Below, one piece after another: positions 45,249-57,103 of a stretch of 64,000 bases of DNA. Each line of letters starts with the position of its first letter. Position 1 is the stretch's first letter. Under the pieces are notes generated by a model. It did no database searches and was not told where the DNA came from. It saw only the letters and a list, made by a program, of their open reading frames with translations. A program made the translations under genes and the position numbers. The DNA comes from Haloactinopolyspora alba. GTDB taxonomy: Bacteria; Actinomycetota; Actinomycetes; Jiangellales; Jiangellaceae. Location: NCBI RefSeq assembly GCF_003014555.1, contig NZ_PYGE01000004.1, forward strand, positions 1-64,000, in the 5' to 3' direction.

Positions 45249-45292
45249 GGGCGCGCCCGAAGGGATTCGAACCCTAACCTTCTGATCCGTAG
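45249..45292. repeat. left attachment-site copy: 3' part of tRNA-Arg
   Basis: 44 bases repeat the 3' half of the tRNA-Arg(ACG) gene at 53515-53559, in the same orientation, with one missing C in the T-arm. The match stops inside the anticodon loop region. This is the expected far-end duplicate made by tRNA-targeting integration (attL). Confidence 0.9.
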
Positions 45293-45440: not shown

Positions 45441-45737
45441 TCACGTACTCGCCCGTCTCTGTTCGGTCCAGGCCGACGAGCCGGTACGGGCGTGGCGCCC
45501 ATCCGGGAGGTTCTCGGGGTCGCGCGGATAGGTCGTGTGATCCTTCAGCATCAGCTCGTTGTAGGCGCCGCCCCGGTGTCGGGCTCGTTGTCGTTGACCA
45601 TGCCGCCGAGCGGCGGGGTTGTCGTAGTCGAAGTCCGCCGTGATCTTGCCGGTGTCGTCCACGGTGAACGTGGCGTTGTACCAGGTACCCTTCCCCGGCT
45701 CGTACATCGACTTGCGCAGCTCGGTGACCGTTCGCAC
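45441..45737 (-). pseudogene. YezG/DUF600-like immunity protein remnant
   Basis: The leftward frame contains VTELRKSMYEPGKGTWYNAT, then ADFDYDNP, and further on KDHTTYPRDPENLP. This is the C-terminal core of YezG-type immunity proteins of polymorphic toxin systems. Between DFDYDNP and YNELMLKDH the natural sequence is recovered only in a neighbouring frame (PPLGGMVNDNEPDTG), so two compensating indels are present. A stop codon precedes the fragment, and the N-terminal half is missing. No toxin partner is seen. Confidence 0.6.
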
Positions 45738-45753
45738 TTCGGCCCCCTGGGCA

Positions 45754-45969
45754 GCGCTTCAGTCCTCGGGTCTGTTCACGCCGAATCAGCTCGCCAACTG
45801 TGCGACCAATGGTCCCGGCGGCACGCCGACCGAAGCGGACGTGGTCGACTTCATCAAGCCGAAGCACAAGGTCCGGTCGGCGATGGCTGTCGCGAAGGTC
45901 TTCGACGAAGCGACCGCCCGTAAGATCAAGAGCGTGGAAAACGTCCTGGTTGAGATCGCGGACAAGTGA
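45754..45969 (+). pseudogene. C-terminal remnant of an OLD-family nuclease (GajA-like)
   Basis: About 71 residues remain in frame, ending VRSAMAVAKVFDEATARKIK followed by SVENVLVEIADK. This helical tail resembles the extreme C-terminus of OLD/GajA ATPase-TOPRIM endonucleases. Its TGA overlaps the helicase GTG as GTGA, the usual coupling of a gajA-gajB pair. The ATPase and TOPRIM domains are absent, deleted near 45750, where the immunity remnant of opposite orientation begins. The assignment is inferred mostly from the partner gene. Confidence 0.5.
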
Positions 45970-47648
45970 AGAATCCCACCCCTGCGCAGGTGAAGGTCCG
46001 CGATCATGAGTCACTCTCGCTGCTCCTGGTCGCGCCTGCAGGCTGCGGGAAGACCGAAGCTCTCGCGATCCGGATCGCTAGCCTCATAGAGAACGGCCAG
46101 ATCGCGTCACCACAACGGATCTTGGCTACGACCTTCACCAACAAGGCGAAGGACAACATCCAGAATCGGCTGAGAGACTACGTCACGTACTCCGCGCGGC
46201 GCGACCACGTCACGGTGATGAACTACCACGGGCTCGCCGCGAGGCTGGTCCGGGCGCACGGCGCGATCATCGGCGTCGACCCGACGATACAGCTTCCTGA
46301 AAGCGACTGGGTGACCGACCGATGCCTCGAACTCGGCCTCGGGTACGCCGGTCGGGACACCGTGAACGTCATCCTCAACGAACTTAAGCGGCAGCCGCTG
46401 GACGACGCGGCGATCGCAGCGGCGCTCGCGGAAAACGGGCACCCATGGGCGATCCAGATCGAGGAGGAGCGCGTCGCGGCCAACCGGTCTACGTACGACG
46501 ACTTGCTCCGCTACGCGGAACTCATCCTCGCCAACGACGCGGTCGCCAGCCTGTATCGCTGCCATTTCGGTGCGATCATCGTCGACGAGTACCAGGATCT
46601 CACACCGCAACAACTGCGGGTACTACAGCGCCTCGGGGCAGGCAACATCACGTTCGCCGGCGACCTCGCCCAAGGCATCTACGGCTTCACCGGCGCCCGA
46701 CCACACGAGATCGACGCGACCATCCGGCCGCTGTGCGACGAAGTCATCATGTTCAACGAAAGCCACAGATCGTCGCCCGCCGTGCTATCCATGGTGAACG
46801 CAATGAGCACCCTCACCGGCGGGGAGAACCTCGTCTGCGCTGATCCGGAATCCTGGCCTGGGAGCGGTCTCGCCGGGCGACTAACATTCCCTCACGCCGT
46901 GAAGGAGGCCGAATGGGTGAGCAAGGCCGCGCAGACCATTCTCGCCGGCGTTCCGAATCACCGGGTTGCGGTAACGTCGCGTATCAAGAGCCGACTGCGG
47001 TTCATCGACCAGCACCTCGAGGACACAGGCATCGAGATGCACCGGTGGGAAGACGGCGTACTCGATACGGAGACAGCTGCCATTGTGCGCTCGACGCTCA
47101 CGCGCCTCAACCTCGCGGACCTCGACGCTGCCCACGACAAGCTGACGTTCCTGCGCGACGTCGCGGGCATCGCGCAGGTGGAGGAGCCCGACACCCGCAA
47201 GAGCCTCGCCGATGCGCTCAACTGGATCCTCGAGCGGCTCGGCGACGGGTTAAGCCCGGCTGAGGTCGCTGGCCGTATCCGAGTCGGCGACCAGACGACG
47301 CTCCTGAACGCTCCAGGAATCCACCTGCTCAGCGGCCATGTGGGCAAGGGCCAGCAGTTCGACTGGGTATTCATCCTCGGAGCCGAAGACGACAACATCC
47401 CATTCTTCCGCGCAACGACCTCCGCCGAGGTCGAAGAAGAGGCCCGCATCCTCGGTGTGATGCTTTCCCGCGCACGACACGGTGTCGTGGTGACCCATAG
47501 CGAGGTGGTGCCCACGGTGAGCGGAAGCAACAGAAACCGTGATCGCTCCCGGTTCTGGCCGTACCTTGATGCGGCGCGCCCTCGCGATCGAGAGGGCATC
47601 GTCGAGTGGGTCAAGGTAGCGCCCTGGAACTCGCTGCGAGACAAGTGA
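45966..47648 (+). CDS. UvrD/Rep-like superfamily 1 helicase (GajB-like)
   Basis: A 560-residue helicase. Motif I LLLVAPAGCGKTEALAIRIA, Ia TFTNKAKDNI, II IIVDEYQDLTPQQL, III FAGDLAQGIYGFTGA, a late motif HVGKGQQFDWVFILGAEDDN and VI GVMLSRARHGVVVTHS are all present, so it appears intact. Length and motif style match UvrD-like helicases of Gabija-type defence pairs and related stand-alone helicases. GTG at 45966 overlaps the upstream nuclease tail. With the nuclease lost, a complete Gabija system is not encoded. Codon use is less GC-rich than in flanking genes. Confidence 0.85.
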   Translation: MKNPTPAQVKVRDHESLSLLLVAPAGCGKTEALAIRIASLIENGQIASPQRILATTFTNKAKDNIQNRLRDYVTYSARRDHVTVMNYHGLAARLVRAHGAIIGVDPTIQLPESDWVTDRCLELGLGYAGRDTVNVILNELKRQPLDDAAIAAALAENGHPWAIQIEEERVAANRSTYDDLLRYAELILANDAVASLYRCHFGAIIVDEYQDLTPQQLRVLQRLGAGNITFAGDLAQGIYGFTGARPHEIDATIRPLCDEVIMFNESHRSSPAVLSMVNAMSTLTGGENLVCADPESWPGSGLAGRLTFPHAVKEAEWVSKAAQTILAGVPNHRVAVTSRIKSRLRFIDQHLEDTGIEMHRWEDGVLDTETAAIVRSTLTRLNLADLDAAHDKLTFLRDVAGIAQVEEPDTRKSLADALNWILERLGDGLSPAEVAGRIRVGDQTTLLNAPGIHLLSGHVGKGQQFDWVFILGAEDDNIPFFRATTSAEVEEEARILGVMLSRARHGVVVTHSEVVPTVSGSNRNRDRSRFWPYLDAARPRDREGIVEWVKVAPWNSLRDK

Positions 47649-47767
47649 CGTCGTCAGGGCCGAGGTCGCGACGGTCCCCACTTCACCTCGAAACTGACAA
47701 CCACGCTTGTGCTAGGCCCGGACCAGAAGAGAACTAGGTACGACGACAGCGAACTTCGCCGCGATCT

Positions 47768-47932
47768 GACTGCCTACGACCGCGCCGCATCCGCCCGCAC
47801 TCGCTGCGGCACGCCGCGATCACCAACGCTCTCGACGTCGGCGTCCCGCGGTGCGACGCCCGGAAACTGGCCCGCCACGCCGACCCACGCACCACCGAGC
47901 ACTACGACCGAGCCCGATGCAACCTCGACCGC
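47768..47932 (+). pseudogene. tyrosine recombinase (integrase) C-terminal remnant
   Basis: The frame reads RIRPHSLRHAAITNALDVGV and then KLARHADPRTTEHYDRAR, containing the catalytic R-H...H...Y set of phage-type integrases (Tyr codon at 47903). The usual ending LDRHGVHFL is recovered only by shifting frame after LDR, so a base has been lost. Everything upstream of the last ~55 residues is missing. It probably came from the recombinase that inserted the element into tRNA-Arg. Confidence 0.82.
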
Positions 47933-48410
47933 ACGGCGTCCACTTCCTCGGACGGCCAGCTGCCTCAACGGGGCGATCCGCTCACCGGACGCCACCACCG
48001 CCGAAGAAGCACCGCCCCCAGGAGTGGCTCCGTGCTCTGGAAGGCGGCATGGTTTTCAACGTGTATGACGAACTACATTGCGTAACGACCTTACGACAGA
48101 GCGGGCTACACGAGGGCCAGCGTTAGTAAGCGAACTCAACACTTACGACACCCTAGACAGGGCGGTCGTGTCGACGGCGAGCACTTCCGCATCAACAACG
48201 CTGTCGCCCACGGGTGAACTGGCCTGTGGAAGACAAGCAGAGGCTTGCTGAGCTGCAGGTTGGCTTTGGAGGTCTCCACCAGCACCGTTTGTAGGTCAGT
48301 GCTGACACCACCCGGACCAGGAGGGCACCCTAGTGTTGGTGGGAGTTGACACCACCCTGGCGGGCGCGCAAGCGGAGCGAGTCCGAGCGAGATTGAGCGG
48401 AGGTGGGCGC
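47933..48410. other. non-coding stretch between integrase remnant and PadR gene
   Basis: No frame here resembles a protein. An 11-base direct repeat TGACACCACCC occurs at 48303-48313 and 48347-48357, 44 bases apart, just upstream of the PadR gene and may belong to its control region. Confidence 0.4.
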
Positions 48411-50359: not shown

Positions 50360-50769
50360 GGGGCCCGCGAGGTGTTGCGGGAAGACCGATTAGGCACCGC
50401 GCAAGCAGATCTTCGTCGCGCCAGGGACAGGTGGTGTCGAGGTTGATGTCGTCGGCGGCAGCACAGGCCTGATCCTGGGCGTGCTCGTCACCAACGTCTT
50501 CGTCACCACGCAAGGCCGGGCCGTCGTACTGACCTGGGCTTCAGTGGGACTCGACCTGGCCTACTCGCTGCTCATCGGCTCCGTCGTCGGTCGTACCCCG
50601 CACTCCGGGCCGACTCAGTACCGCCCACCGAAGCCCTGCGCAGCACATGACCAGGCACCTCGGTAGGGCCAGTGATTCCGGGCTGTGGTCGCATGCGGTC
50701 ACCGTTCCCGGGCGGTGGCCCGGTGCCGAAAGTCGTGCCCACGGCGTGCTCACGTCAGGAGTGCCACCG
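50360..50769. other. stretch without a recognisable gene
   Basis: 410 bases between the hydrolase and the IS21 transposase. A hydrophobic frame near 50481-50570 (LTWASVGLDLAYSLLIG) could be a remnant of a membrane protein but has no start or family match. The left end of the IS should lie here, but no terminal repeat matching the right end was found. Confidence 0.4.
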
Positions 50770-52454
50770 ATGACGCAGCCGCGTTCCCGGGTCGACCTGT
50801 ACGCGGCGATCCGACGGGATGCCCGATCTGGGATGTCCAACCGCGCGCTGCAGCGCAAGCACGGCGTCGGCTTCCGAACCGTGACAGCGGCGCTGGAATC
50901 TGCATGGCCGAAGGAGAGAAAGCACCCGCCCAAACGCGGCTCACGGCTTGACGCGTACCGAGTGGTGATCGACGACTGGCTGCGCTCGGACCTCGACGCG
51001 CCGCGGAAGCAGCGACACACGGCGAAGCGGATCTTCGATCGACTGCTTGACGAACATGACGGGGCCGGGGTGGTGTCGTACTGGATGGTCCGCGAGTACG
51101 TCGCCACCCGACGCCGTGAGATTCGCGTCGAGGTCGGACGGGAACCTGCCAACGCGTTCATCCCGCAAGAGCACCTCCCGGGCCGCGAGGCCGAGGTTGA
51201 CTTCGGCGACGTCGCCATCCGCCTGCGCGGCGAGCTCGTAACCTGCGCGCTGTTCAGCCTTCGGCTCTCCTACTCGGGTACTCGGGCAAGGCCGTGCACA
51301 GGGTCAGTGCCTCGGCTGGGCAGGAAGCCTTCTTCGAGGGTCACGTCCACGCCTTCAACGTGCTCGGCGGGGTGCCGACCGGGAAGATCCGCTACGACAA
51401 CCTCAAGGCCGCCGTCGCGAGCGTGATCGGGTTCTCCCGCCAGCGGGTCGAGGCCGACAGGTGGACCGCCGTCCGTTCCCACTACGGCATCGAAGCCTTC
51501 TATTGCCAGCCCGGAATCCAAGGTGCGCACGAGAAGGGCGGCGTCGAGGGGCAGATCGGCTGGTTCCGACGCAACCACCTCGTCCCTATCCCCGAGGTCG
51601 ACTCCCTAGACGAGCTCAACGCTATGGTCGACGCCTGGGACGAAGCCGACGATGCCCGGCGGATCGGGTCCCGCGCCCGCACGGTCGGGGAACACTTCGC
51701 CACCGAGCAGCCACTCCTCGCGCCCCTTCCGACCGAGCCGTTCGAGACCGGCCGCTGGTTCACCCCGCGCGTGGACAGGTACGCCCAGGTCACGGTCCGG
51801 ATGAACAAGTACTCCGTGCCCGCGCGCATGGTCGGCCGTCAAGCCCGGGTGCTCCTGAACGCCAGCGACCTGGTCGTGTTCGACGGCAGGACCGAGATCG
51901 CCCGCCACGAACGGCTCATGACCAAGGGCTCGACCCGGGTCGACCTGGACCACTATCTCGAGGTCCTCCTCCGCGAACCGGGCGCGCTACCCGGTGCGAC
52001 AGCGCTGGAGCAGGCCAGGGCATCCGGGCGGTTCACGCCCGTTCACGACGCCTGGTGGGCCGCGGCCTGCAAGGCCCACGGTGACGCCGACGGCACCCGT
52101 GCCCTCATCGAGGTCCTGATGCTGCACCGGCACCTTCCACACGACCACGTCGTCGCCGGACTCGCGACGGCGCTGCGTGCAGGCGCGCTCACCGCGGACG
52201 CTGTCGCGTTGGAAGCGCGCAAGTACAACGACACAGCAGATGGCGGAGCCGACGACACGACAGCGGACCACCAGTCCCTGATGAGCGGCGACAGGGCACG
52301 CGGAGAAGGCGAGATCCCTGCCGTGCGATCGCTGACCGAGCGCCGGCTCCGCGCCCACATCCCGGCCGACACTCGGCCGCTGCCGAGCGTGGAGAAGTGC
52401 GACCAGCTGTTGGCCAGCCGACGTGACACCCCGAACGAAGGAGCCGCACCGTGA
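50770..52454 (+). pseudogene. istA: IS21 transposase IstA, frameshifted
   Basis: The protein would be about 560 residues. The 5' part has a helix-turn-helix (RRDARSGMSNRALQRKHGVG) and the first catalytic Asp (EAEVDFGDVA); after a frame change at 51271-51286 the rest carries the second Asp (KIRYDNLKAAV), the Glu (AHEKGGVEGQIGWFRRNHL) and the C-terminal beta-barrel. The break is an 8-base tandem duplication of TACTCGGG: removing one copy restores one frame through YSGKAVHRV. The stop overlaps istB as GTGA. Confidence 0.93.
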
Positions 52455-53230
52455 CCACCAAGCGCCGTGGAATGACCGAAGAAGCAGCCGACGCCGCGAT
52501 CGACCAAGCGTGCCGGATGCTGCGAATGCCCACCATCCGCAACTCCTTCACCGACTACGCCGACCGGGCAGGGCGTGAGCAGATGTCTTACCGCGGGTTC
52601 CTCGCCGAACTATTGCTTGCCGAGTGCGACGATCGCGCCCGACGCCGGTCCGAACGCCGGATCAAGGCCGCCAAGTTCCCCCGCGAGAAGTCCCTGCGGG
52701 CCTTCGACTTCGACGCCAACCCCAACATCGATCCCGCCGTGATCCACACCCTCGCCAAGTGCGAATGGGTCCAGAAGGGACAGCCGCTGTGTCTGATCGG
52801 GGACTCCGGCACCGGCAAGTCCCATCTGCTGATCGCACTCGGCACCGAGGCCGCCATGGCCGGCTACCGGGTCAAGTACACCCTGGCGACCCAGCTTGCC
52901 AACGAGCTCGTCGAGGCCGCCGACGAGATGACGCTGGCGAAGACCATCGCCCGCTACGGCCGCGTCGACCTGCTGTGCATCGACGAACTCGGCTACATGC
53001 AACTCGACCGCCGCGGCGCGGAACTCCTCTTCCAGGTCCTCACCGAGCGTGAGGAGAAGGCCTCGGTCGCGATCGCGTCCAATGAGTCCTTCGGCGGCTG
53101 GACCAAGACCTTCACCGACCCCCGGCTATGCGCAGCCATCGTCGACCGACTCACCTTCGGCGGCACCATCCTCGAGACCGGCACCGACTCCTACCGTCTG
53201 GCCCAAGCCACAAAGCAGCGGACAACCTGA
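52451..53230 (+). CDS. istB: IS21 helper ATPase IstB
   Basis: A 259-residue DnaC-like AAA+ ATPase. The N-terminal helical part (AIDQACRMLRMPTIRNSFTD) precedes Walker A GDSGTGKSHLL (near residue 117) and Walker B VDLLCIDELGYMQL, then VAIASNESFGGWTKTFTDPR. It selects target sites and activates IstA in the family. The GTG at 52451 overlaps the istA stop. The frame is intact although istA is broken. Confidence 0.94.
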   Translation: MTTKRRGMTEEAADAAIDQACRMLRMPTIRNSFTDYADRAGREQMSYRGFLAELLLAECDDRARRRSERRIKAAKFPREKSLRAFDFDANPNIDPAVIHTLAKCEWVQKGQPLCLIGDSGTGKSHLLIALGTEAAMAGYRVKYTLATQLANELVEAADEMTLAKTIARYGRVDLLCIDELGYMQLDRRGAELLFQVLTEREEKASVAIASNESFGGWTKTFTDPRLCAAIVDRLTFGGTILETGTDSYRLAQATKQRTT

Positions 53231-53514
53231 CACCCGTCGGGCGCGGAAGCGGTGTCGACGCAAACCAACATCCGCGGCACCGACACGTGCCCGGCGGTGT
53301 CAGAACTCGCCAACAAGCGGTGTCGGACGAAACCTCCGCAGCCAGCACGTTGACTACAAGACCGTCCAAGCGCACCGGAACTACGCGGGCCAGTAGTAGT
53401 TGGGGCCGACAACCCGGCGTACTGCGCACAGTGTAGACGGAGTTTCGCACCACGCGCGGCACCACGCTACTTTCGCTTTCGAGGTGCGCTGCAGCGATTC
53501 TCGCTGGTGAGACT

Positions 53515-53559
53515 GGGCGCGCCCGAAGGGATTCGAACCCCTAACCTTCTGATCCGTAG
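53515..53559. repeat. right attachment-site copy at tRNA-Arg
   Basis: 45 bases that include the 3' half of the intact tRNA-Arg gene and match 45249-45292 with one indel. It marks the right boundary (attR) of the integrated element. Confidence 0.9.
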
Positions 53560-53590
53560 TCAGATGCTCTATCCGTTGAGCTACGGGCGC
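53518..53590 (-). tRNA. tRNA-Arg (ACG)
   Basis: A 73-base cloverleaf on the reverse strand without encoded CCA. Acceptor GCGCCCG pairs with CGGGCGC, the anticodon stem TCTGA/TCAGA encloses CTACGGA (anticodon ACG, read as ICG), and the T-arm is GGGGTTCGAATCCC. It is the intact copy at the boundary of the integrative element. Confidence 0.96.
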
Positions 53591-53791
53591 ACGGCCCGCA
53601 GGGCGGACCGGTCACCGAGTGTACCGGTCCCCGCGCTCATCCCGAAATCGCGAACCGGCCCCGCATCACCACCGGTCCCTGCGGCGATGAGCGATGTCGG
53701 TGCCGAACCGTAGGCTCGTCCTTGGGCGTGCCGGTCAGCCAGGCCGGCACGGCCCCACCTGGTCACCGACGAGTCCGGAGGCGACGGCACC

Positions 53792-54994
53792 GTGACGCGG
53801 CATCCGCACAGCCTGTCCATCATCAACGCACGGATCTTCGACGGAGAGTCCGCGGAGCTGATCGAAGGTGCCATCCACGTGGCCGACGGGGTCGTCACCG
53901 AGATCGGGCCCACCGTCTCGACCGGCGACGAGGTGGTCGACGCGCGCGGCGGCACGGTCGTTCCGGGCCTGATCGACGCGCACTGCCACGCGTACGGCAT
54001 CGGTCTGGACATGGTCGAGATCGAGTCGACGCCGTCGAGCTATGTCGCGCTCGCTGGCGCCATGCGGCTCGAGGCGGCTCTGCGCCGCGGGTTCACCACG
54101 GTGCGTGACGTCGCCGGGGGCGATCCCGGGCTGGCGCGGGCCGTCGACGAGGGGCTGGTCACCGCGCCGCGATACTTCTTCACCGGTGCGGCGCTGTCGC
54201 AGACCGGCGGGCACGGCGATCCGCGGCCGGGAAACCGTGACCTGTGCGCGGGCCATCACCACATGACCGAGGTCGTGGACGGGGTCGACGCCGTCCGCCG
54301 TGCGGTGCGCGACCGGTTCCGTCAGGGCGCGCACGCCATCAAGATCATGACCTCGGGTGGCGTCGTCTCGTTGACGGATCCGATCCGGCTGCCGCAGTAC
54401 AGCGCCGACGAGGTCCGGGCCATCACCGACGAGGCCGCCCGCCGTGGCTCGTACGTCGCCGCGCACGCCTACTCACCAGAGGCCATCGAGCACTCGGTGG
54501 TCAACGGCGTGCGCTCCATCGAGCACGGCAACCTGCTGGACGAGCCGACCGCACGGCTCATGGCCGAGCACGGCGCGGTCCTGGTGCCCACGTTGGCGAC
54601 GTACGACGCGATGGATCGCCGCGGCGAGGCGCTCGGTCTGAACCCGACATCGCAGGCGAAGAACCGCGAGGTGCTCGACTCCGGCCGGCGTGCCGTCGAG
54701 ATCGCCCGCGCGGCCGGTGTGCGGGTGGGGTTCGGCACCGACCTGATGGGGGCGCTCGAGGACGAGCAGCTGGCCGGCTTGCGGTTGCAGGTGGAGGTCG
54801 ACGGGGTGCTCGACGCGCTGCGGTCGGCGACGTCAGTCAATGCGGACCTGCTGGGCCGTCGCGACCTGGGGCGTGTCGCGGTCGGCGCGGCCGGTGACCT
54901 CGTGGTGCTGGACGGTGATCCGTTCGGCGACCCGTCGGTGCTGTGGGCCACCGAGACCCGGCGGACAGTGGTACGGGGCGGCAAGGTGGTGTGA
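53792..54994 (+). CDS. amidohydrolase family protein (prolidase-like)
   Basis: A 400-residue metal-dependent hydrolase. Metal motifs are GLIDAHCHAYG (HxH), the carbamylated Lys in HAIKIMTSGGVVS, His in YVAAHAYSPEAIEHSVVNG and SIEHGN, and the late Asp in VGFGTDLMG. The N- and C-terminal beta-sandwich contains INARIFDGESA and AAGDLVVLDGDPFGDPSVLW. Relatives hydrolyse Xaa-Pro or Xaa-Arg dipeptide analogues, but the substrate is unproven. It uses a GTG start and stands alone just right of the element boundary. Confidence 0.88.
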   Translation: MTRHPHSLSIINARIFDGESAELIEGAIHVADGVVTEIGPTVSTGDEVVDARGGTVVPGLIDAHCHAYGIGLDMVEIESTPSSYVALAGAMRLEAALRRGFTTVRDVAGGDPGLARAVDEGLVTAPRYFFTGAALSQTGGHGDPRPGNRDLCAGHHHMTEVVDGVDAVRRAVRDRFRQGAHAIKIMTSGGVVSLTDPIRLPQYSADEVRAITDEAARRGSYVAAHAYSPEAIEHSVVNGVRSIEHGNLLDEPTARLMAEHGAVLVPTLATYDAMDRRGEALGLNPTSQAKNREVLDSGRRAVEIARAAGVRVGFGTDLMGALEDEQLAGLRLQVEVDGVLDALRSATSVNADLLGRRDLGRVAVGAAGDLVVLDGDPFGDPSVLWATETRRTVVRGGKVV

Positions 54995-55255
54995 TTCGCA
55001 TCTGGTACGGACCACCGCGCCAGCATGGTCCGGTGAGGTACGTACCAGTGTCGCTTTTGTCCGGGTTTGTACGTGCAGATGTGGCCCTGGTCACCCTCTG
55101 ATCGGTTCCACGAGCTGAGACGGGCTCGTAGCGTGCTGATCAATCCTGCGGACACGCACCCGCCTCCGAATGGCCTGAGGACGGGTCGTCTCCGCCTACC
55201 TCCGTGCCGGCCGCAGGCCGGCGACGGGTGACGACGAAGAGGGTGACCACCGACG

Positions 55256-57103
55256 ATGACGACGTTCGCCGACCCAGGACTGACCCACGGTCTCGACGAC
55301 GCCCCCACCTCCCACCGGCGACTGCTCACGTGGGTCCGCGAGACCGCCGAGCTCACCCAGCCCGACCGCGTTCACTGGTGCGACGGCTCTGACGCCGAAT
55401 GGACCGCGTTGACCGACGCGCTGGTCGACGCCGGCACCATGGTCCGGCTCGACCCGGACAAGAAGCCCAACTCGTTCTGGGCACGCACCGACCCCTCGGA
55501 CGTGGCGCGCGTCGAGGAGCGCACCTTCATCTGCTCCGTCGACGAGGCCGACGCCGGCCCGACGAACAACTGGCGCGACCCCGCCGAGATGAAGGCCGAG
55601 ATGACCGAGCTGTACCGCGGCTCGATGCGCGGCCGGACGATGTACGTCATCCCATTCTGCATGGGGCCGGTCGACGCCGCGAACCCGATGTTCGGTGTCG
55701 AGATCACCGACTCCCCGTACGTCGTCGTGTCCATGCGGGTCATGGCCCGGATGGGCGCGCACGTTCTCGACGCGATGGGTGACGACGCGGACTTCGTCCC
55801 GTGCCTGCACTCCGTCGGGGCCCCGCTCGAGCCCGGCCAGGACGACGTCGCCTGGCCGTGCAACGACACGAAGTACATCACCCAGTTCCCCGAAGAACGC
55901 ATGATCTGGTCGTACGGCTCCGGCTACGGCGGCAACTCGCTGCTCGGCAAGAAGTGCTACTCGCTGCGCATCGCCAGCGTCATGGCTCGCGACGAGGGCT
56001 GGCTGGCCGAGCACATGCTGATCCTCAAGCTCACCTCGCCGCACGGATCCGTGCACTACGTCGCTGCGGCGTTCCCGTCCGCGTGCGGCAAGACCAACCT
56101 CGCGATGCTCGAGCCGACCATCCCGGGCTGGAAGGTCGAGACACTCGGCGACGACATCGCATGGATGCGCTTCGGCGACGACGGCCGCCTCTACGCGCTG
56201 AACCCCGAGTACGGTCTGTTCGGCGTCGCGCCCGGAACCGGCTGGACGACCAACCCGAACGCGATGCGCACCATCGAGCGTGGCAACAGCGTGTTCACCA
56301 ACGTCGCTCTCACCGACGACGGCGACATCTGGTGGGAGGGCATGACCGACGAGCCGCCGGCGCACCTCACCGACTGGAAGGGCCGCGACTGGACGCCCCA
56401 CGTGGGTGAGTCCGGTGAGAAGGCGGCGCACCCGAACTCGCGGTTCTGTACGCCGATCACGCAGTGCCCCATCATCGCGCCCGAGTACGACGACCCGCGT
56501 GGCGTGCCGATCTCGGCCATCCTGTTCGGCGGCCGCCGCGCCACCACGATCCCCCTGGTCACCGAGGCGCGCGACTGGACGCACGGGGTGTTCATGGGCG
56601 CGACGCTCTCGTCGGAGACGACCGCCGCGGCGGCCGGCCAGGTCGGCGTCGTCCGGCGCGACCCGATGGCCATGCTGCCGTTCATCGGCTACAACGGCGG
56701 CGATTACTTCGGGCACTGGATCGGCCTCGGCAAGGACGCCGACGCGGCCAAGCTGCCGAACATCTACTACGTCAACTGGTTCCGCAAGGACGACGACGGC
56801 GACATCGTCTGGCCCGGGTTCGGCGAGAACGGCCGCGTGCTCAAGTGGATCGTCGAGCGCCTCGAAGGCACGGCCGCGGCCACCGAGACGCCGATCGGCC
56901 ACGTCCCGACGCGGGACGCGCTGGACGTCGACGGCCTCGGCATGACCGACGACGAGGTCGGCGAGTGCCTGCGTGTGGACGCCGAGGAGTGGCGGGCCGA
57001 GGTGCCGGGAATCACCGAGTGGTTCGAGAAGTTCGGTGACCACCTGCCGACCTTGTTGTGGGCCGAACTGGACGGGCTCAAGGCGCGGCTGGGGATGCTG
57101 TGA
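55256..57103 (+). CDS. pckG: phosphoenolpyruvate carboxykinase (GTP)
   Basis: A 615-residue cytoplasmic enzyme converting oxaloacetate to PEP with GTP. The P-loop with its reactive cysteine is [12 protein letters not shown] (residues about 273-284), and other family blocks are [42 protein letters not shown] and [13 protein letters not shown]. Length matches the family. The ATG follows AGAGGGTG. It is monocistronic, with a perfect 10-bp hairpin 6 bases after the stop. The 261-base upstream region holds an imperfect dyad but no clear operator. Confidence 0.97.

What the first reader, a model, noticed from the sequence alone, without database searches (positions are those of the whole stretch)
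45754..47648. Broken Gabija-like defence pair: GajB-type helicase coupled to only the tail of its nuclease
An intact UvrD-like helicase starts within the stop codon of a frame holding just ~70 residues that look like an OLD/GajA C-terminus. Known Gabija systems need both GajA and GajB. Persistence of an intact helicase without its nuclease raises the possibility of a role alone or recent nuclease loss.
Basis: inference. Interest (0 to 1): 0.6.

Follow-up and report, generated by a model that had tools for sequence, protein, structure and literature searches.

The report
Broken Gabija defence pair, nuclease deleted
This bacterium carries the wreck of a common two-gene anti-phage defence system: the helicase-like gene is still whole, but a deletion removed all but the last seventh of its nuclease partner, so the system almost certainly no longer works; the case is real but ordinary.

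Summary
The 560-aa frame at 45966-47648 is a complete GajB (PADLOC E 3e-220). The 70 residues before it are the C-terminus of GajA (profile positions 466-534 of 536, E 2e-14), and the two share the 4-bp overlap found in intact operons. The closest relative, a Nocardioidaceae MAG, has a full 536-aa GajA and GajB at 84% identity. In 24 of 24 other loci with a complete GajB of this subfamily, a complete GajA sits directly upstream. This genome has no other GajA.

Homology to GajA stops abruptly at about 45746, where it meets a backward, frameshifted, N-terminally truncated YezG-like immunity gene, as a deletion would leave it. The locus lies in an 8.3-kb decayed island between tRNA-Arg(acg) and a 45-bp copy of that tRNA's 3' end.

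The tail lacks the ATPase domain that binds GajB and all the acidic catalytic residues, so Gabija defence is very probably lost. GajB and the tail show equal purifying selection (dN/dS 0.22 each against the relative), so the loss is probably recent. The intact helicase is therefore not evidence of a role alone; that remains possible but unsupported. Known kind of system, low interest.

The parts
45249..45292 (+). Distal attachment-site copy: 44-45 bp direct repeat of the 3' part (anticodon loop to 3' end) of tRNA-Arg(acg)
   Evidence: 44/45 identical to 53515-53559. The same stretch of the same tRNA is duplicated 2.3 kb away in G012, so this is a recurring integration site.
45441..45745 (-). 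Remnant of a YezG-like immunity gene: N-terminal half missing, at least 3 frameshifts in what is left
   Evidence: PF04634 positions 75-123 of 146, E 1.4e-5. The reading continues across three frames: TADFDYDNPA / GGMVNDNEPDTGA / AYNELMLKDHTTYPRDPENLPD / WAPRPYRLVGL.
45746..45969 (+). gajA C-terminal remnant (last ~71-74 codons, end of the Toprim domain)
   Evidence: PADLOC GajA 466-534/536, E 2e-14. Own GajA profile 459-535/536. 84% identical to L002 GajA. DNA identity to L002 falls to background upstream of 45746.
45966..47648 (+). gajB: intact 560-aa UvrD-like SF1 helicase
   Evidence: PADLOC GajB PDLC00121, E 3.2e-220, 2-558. Pfam UvrD-helicase E 2.6e-34 and UvrD_C E 1.6e-13. All columns invariant in the 17-sequence alignment are kept, including GCGKT, VDEYQD, GDLAQGIYG and SRARHG.
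47709..48000 (+). Frameshifted C-terminal remnant of a tyrosine recombinase (HSLRH...DPRTTEHYDRAR)
   Evidence: PF00589 positions 126-168/172, E 5.7e-5, below the gathering score; continues in other frames.
53514..53591 (-). tRNA-Arg(acg), proximal end of the island (integration target)
   Evidence: ARAGORN. The right-hand flank (amidohydrolase 53792-54994 and the gene at 55247-57100) is syntenic in family members while the left side differs.

Best explanation
This is the remnant of a Gabija (class 2 OLD nuclease plus UvrD-like helicase) anti-phage operon, acquired on an element that integrated at tRNA-Arg(acg). Shown: the gajA-gajB order and 4-bp overlap are those of intact relatives; gajA has lost its first ~460 codons at a sharp breakpoint that also truncates a divergently oriented yezG-like gene; no other gajA exists in the genome; the surrounding island is decayed. 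Inferred: one deletion of at least ~1.6 kb removed the 5' halves of both genes and the operon promoter between them. It left a GajA stub without its ATPase domain (the part that holds GajB and forms the tetramer) and without its metal-binding nuclease residues. The Gabija complex therefore cannot form and does not defend. gajB is intact mainly because the loss is recent relative to the split from its closest known relative; it is probably poorly expressed or inert.
For: PADLOC matches. Intact operon at 84% identity in L002. 24/24 pairing of complete GajB with complete GajA. No second full GajA in the genome: the other hits are a Toprim-only 191-aa protein (L025) and an ABC protein, L027. Breakpoint at ~45746. 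Frameshifted yezG and integrase remnants on both sides. 45-bp att repeat at a recurrent site. dN/dS 0.22 for both the tail and gajB against L002; branch changes polarised by L003 are 4 vs 3 (tail) and 30 vs 20 (gajB), i.e. no clear relaxation. GajA-GajB contacts lie in the GajA ATPase domain and are needed for defence (PMC10781630, PMC10822852). Both genes are required in vivo (PMC12407980).
Against: The single-deletion step is inferred: no relative with the undeleted yezG-gajA junction was found. GajB is intact while its neighbours are frameshifted, which would also fit selection on GajB. The window branch has slightly more GajB changes (30 vs 20; my Tajima-type chi-square is 2.0, p about 0.16), which is inconclusive. 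The assembly at the junction could not be checked against reads.
Confidence: 0.88

Rival explanations
1. GajB has been retained for a function without GajA, for example as a stand-alone DNA-end-stimulated NTPase or helicase acting in DNA repair or in another defence pathway, or with a partner in trans such as the Toprim-only OLD-like protein on contig C5.
For: The ORF is intact with every conserved SF1 motif while yezG and the integrase beside it are frameshifted. dN/dS against L002 is 0.22. This subfamily matches UvrD/PcrA structures better than the solved B. cereus GajB, both by sequence and by predicted fold, so it may keep true helicase activity. An OLD-like Toprim protein exists elsewhere in the genome.
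Against: The dN/dS value is shared with the 71-codon tail, which can have no nuclease function, so it reflects time before the loss. No other complete GajB in the survey lives without GajA. No promoter-like site was found upstream (weak evidence in an actinobacterium). B. cereus GajB alone neither unwinds nor binds DNA (PMC10681800).
Confidence: 0.07
2. The truncation is an assembly artefact (a chimeric join or a dropped segment) and the organism has a complete Gabija system.
For: Draft assembly of 49 contigs. Only one genome shows this junction.
Against: The locus is in the middle of a contig. The missing GajA part is not found anywhere else in the 5.5-Mb, 100%-complete assembly. The neighbouring remnants (integrase, tRNA repeat, yezG) are decayed in a way that assembly errors would not produce.
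Confidence: 0.05

Closest known systems
Gabija anti-phage system (GajA-GajB; class 2 OLD nuclease plus UvrD/PcrA/Rep-like helicase)
   Same: Gene order, 4-bp coupling, complete GajB, and the GajA C-terminus match the PADLOC Gabija models and intact actinobacterial relatives.
   Different: GajA has lost its ATPase domain and the nuclease core, so the two-subunit complex cannot be made.
Intact Gabija locus of Nocardioidaceae MAG YX2bin9 (L002, JAUJOD010000004.1)
   Same: 84% amino-acid identity in both the GajA tail and GajB, identical gene junction.
   Different: Has the full 536-aa GajA; its flanks are unrelated to those of the window.
B. cereus VD045 GajA/GajB (PDB 8SM3, 8J4T, 8JQB)
   Same: GajA of the relative L002 folds as GajA; GajB is found by profile (E 1e-12).
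   Different: This actinobacterial branch is distant; its GajB resembles UvrD/PcrA more than BcGajB, and its GajA is shorter (536 vs 578 aa).

Membership tests
Gabija system | GajB: UvrD-like SF1 helicase of the GajB type | tested here: met
   PDLC00121 E 3.2e-220 over 2-558; motifs intact.
Gabija system | GajA: OLD-family protein with N-terminal ABC ATPase domain | tested here: not met
   Only profile positions 459-535 of 536 remain; no other copy in the genome.
Gabija system | GajA Toprim nuclease site (E379, E383, D432, D434, D511, D513, K541 in B. cereus; PMC10822852) | tested here: not met
   The tail starts at L002 residue ~468, after the invariant acidic residues E365, D369, D421, D450 and E452 of the family alignment. 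Only a lysine (L002 K505, possibly equivalent to K541) is left.
Gabija system | gajA directly upstream of and coupled to gajB | tested here: met
   The gajA stop overlaps the gajB start by 4 bp, as in L002; only the gajA remnant is present.
Gabija system | Protects against phage, with both subunits needed | not testable with these tools
   Literature only: both required (PMC12407980); interface mutants lose defence (PMC10781630).
tRNA-integrated genomic island | Direct repeat of the tRNA 3' end at the far end, with an integrase | tested here: met
   45-bp repeat 45249-45292 / 53515-53559; only an integrase remnant remains; same tRNA used in other genomes.

The most novel reading that the evidence does not exclude
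An actinobacterial GajB, closer to UvrD/PcrA than the studied B. cereus protein, is kept for a function that does not need GajA, so that Gabija helicases can be domesticated as solo proteins.
Probability: 0.06. Interest if true: 0.55.

Novelty: new member of a known kind. Interest (0 to 1): 0.2.

Why it matters
It is a clean example of how a defence operon dies on an island: one subunit removed by a deletion, the partner still readable. In principle such loci would be miscounted as helicase-only or partial Gabija systems. If GajB were shown to act alone, it would bear on what GajB does, which is unsettled (PMC10681800).

Tried and rejected
GajA in trans: the genome's other matches are a Toprim-only 191-aa OLD-like protein (L025) and an ABC protein (L027), not GajA. 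Tail from an unrelated family: rejected by 84% identity to a true GajA terminus. Solo GajB as a widespread form: none among the complete GajB loci examined. GajB inherited vertically: 0 of 21 other family members have it, and 4 of 395 genomes of the class including this one. Viral contigs: no hit. Plasmids: 4 records; the three opened each carry GajA and GajB together. YezG remnant against plasmids: no match. Promoter/terminator scan was uninformative. The undeleted ancestral junction and a true empty site in the same genus were not found; the one same-genus genome has its matching gene on a short separate contig.

Full report
Observation. The window holds a 560-aa open frame at 45966-47648 whose GTG start overlaps the TGA of an upstream frame by four bases. 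The helicase is a full-length match to the PADLOC GajB model PDLC00121 (E 3.2e-220). The last 70 residues of the upstream frame match the very end of the GajA model PDLC00075 (positions 466-534 of 536, E 2e-14). Pfam adds UvrD-helicase and UvrD_C for the helicase and nothing for the tail.

Relatives. A scan of one genome per species found 23 loci. The best, L002 (a Nocardioidaceae MAG), has a complete 536-aa GajA followed by GajB with the same overlap. Both the tail and GajB are 84% identical to the window. With a GajA profile built from the relatives, all 24 distinct loci with a complete GajB of this subfamily carry a complete GajA directly upstream. These are L002-L018, L022 and L023, three plasmids (L072-L074) and two further genomes (L076, L077; L075 is L016 again). 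In the window only profile positions 459-535 remain. Three loci hold GajB fragments (L020, cut by the contig end; L021; L024), and L019 has a full GajA with GajB split over two frames. The genome has no other GajA: its two other hits are a Toprim-only OLD-like protein of 191 aa and an ABC protein.

The break. Aligned to L002, DNA identity is high from about 45746 through gajB to about 47668 and falls to background on both sides. Immediately left of 45746, on the opposite strand, lies the C-terminal half of a YezG-like immunity gene (PF04634 positions 75-123 of 146) with at least three frameshifts. Both genes lack their 5' halves at the same point. The simplest reading (inference) is a single deletion of at least about 1.6 kb across the divergent promoter region. 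To the right of gajB is a frameshifted integrase C-terminus.

The island. A 45-bp stretch at 45249-45292 repeats the anticodon-to-3' end of tRNA-Arg(acg) at 53514-53591 (44/45; tRNA). The gap between the copies is 8.2 kb and holds the gajA/gajB remnant, the integrase remnant, PadR, DoxX and alpha/beta-hydrolase genes and an IS21 pair. The right flank is syntenic in family members and the left differs. The same stretch of this tRNA is duplicated near the tRNA in G012; G010 and G022 carry partial copies 16 and 22 kb away, the latter with a tyrosine recombinase in between. So this is a recurrent integration site. None of the 21 other genomes sampled from the family has this GajB, and only 4 of 395 genomes of the class do, this one included, which fits horizontal acquisition.

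Selection and timing. Against L002, gajB has dN 0.084 and dS 0.376, and the tail has dN 0.087 and dS 0.399 (ratio 0.22 for both). Using L003 as outgroup, window-specific and L002-specific changes are 30 vs 20 in GajB and 4 vs 3 in the tail. A tail without a nuclease cannot be under selection for cleavage, yet it looks as constrained as the helicase. Most of the divergence therefore predates the loss, and an intact gajB does not show that gajB is still selected.

Mechanism. In B. cereus, GajB docks on the GajA ATPase domain, and mutants of that interface lose defence (PMC10781630, PMC10822852). The GajA nuclease site is a cluster of acidic residues plus a lysine (PMC10822852). The remnant has no ATPase domain and starts after the last conserved acidic residues of the family alignment (E365, D369, D421, D450, E452 in L002 numbering). 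Both genes are required for protection (PMC12407980). It follows that this locus does not defend by the Gabija mechanism. What GajB would do alone is unknown; B. cereus GajB alone neither binds nor unwinds DNA (PMC10681800). A caution: this subfamily is closer to UvrD/PcrA than to B. cereus GajB by sequence and by predicted fold (model mean pLDDT 87), so that result may not carry over. The L002 GajA model (mean pLDDT 81) finds GajA and Thermus OLD structures best.

Verdict. A real, correctly recognised, degenerate Gabija locus: a known system, one subunit deleted, probably recently. A solo role for GajB is not excluded but has no positive support.

Noticed in passing
window 45249-45292 and 53514-53591: tRNA-Arg(acg) with a 45-bp 3'-end duplicate 8.2 kb away. 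The same tRNA stretch is duplicated in G012 (2.3 kb away), with partial copies in G010 (16 kb) and G022 (22 kb, Tyr recombinase between): a recurrent integration hotspot.
   Followed up: partly
window 50647-53230: IS21 istA/istB pair next to the tRNA; istA reads as two overlapping frames (50647-51426 and 51294-52454), so it may be frameshifted.
   Followed up: no
L019 4980-6648: Mirror case in Mycolicibacterium chlorophenolicum: full-length GajA with GajB split over two frames.
   Followed up: no
L025 1489-2064 (genome contig C5): Toprim-only OLD-like protein of 191 aa without ATPase domain; function unknown.
   Followed up: partly
L002-L018, L072-L077: This actinobacterial GajB branch is nearer to UvrD/PcrA than to the solved B. 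cereus GajB, and its GajA is only ~536 aa, near the size of the class 1 Thermus OLD (528 aa). Whether it keeps true helicase activity and the class 2 Toprim insert is untested.
   Followed up: partly
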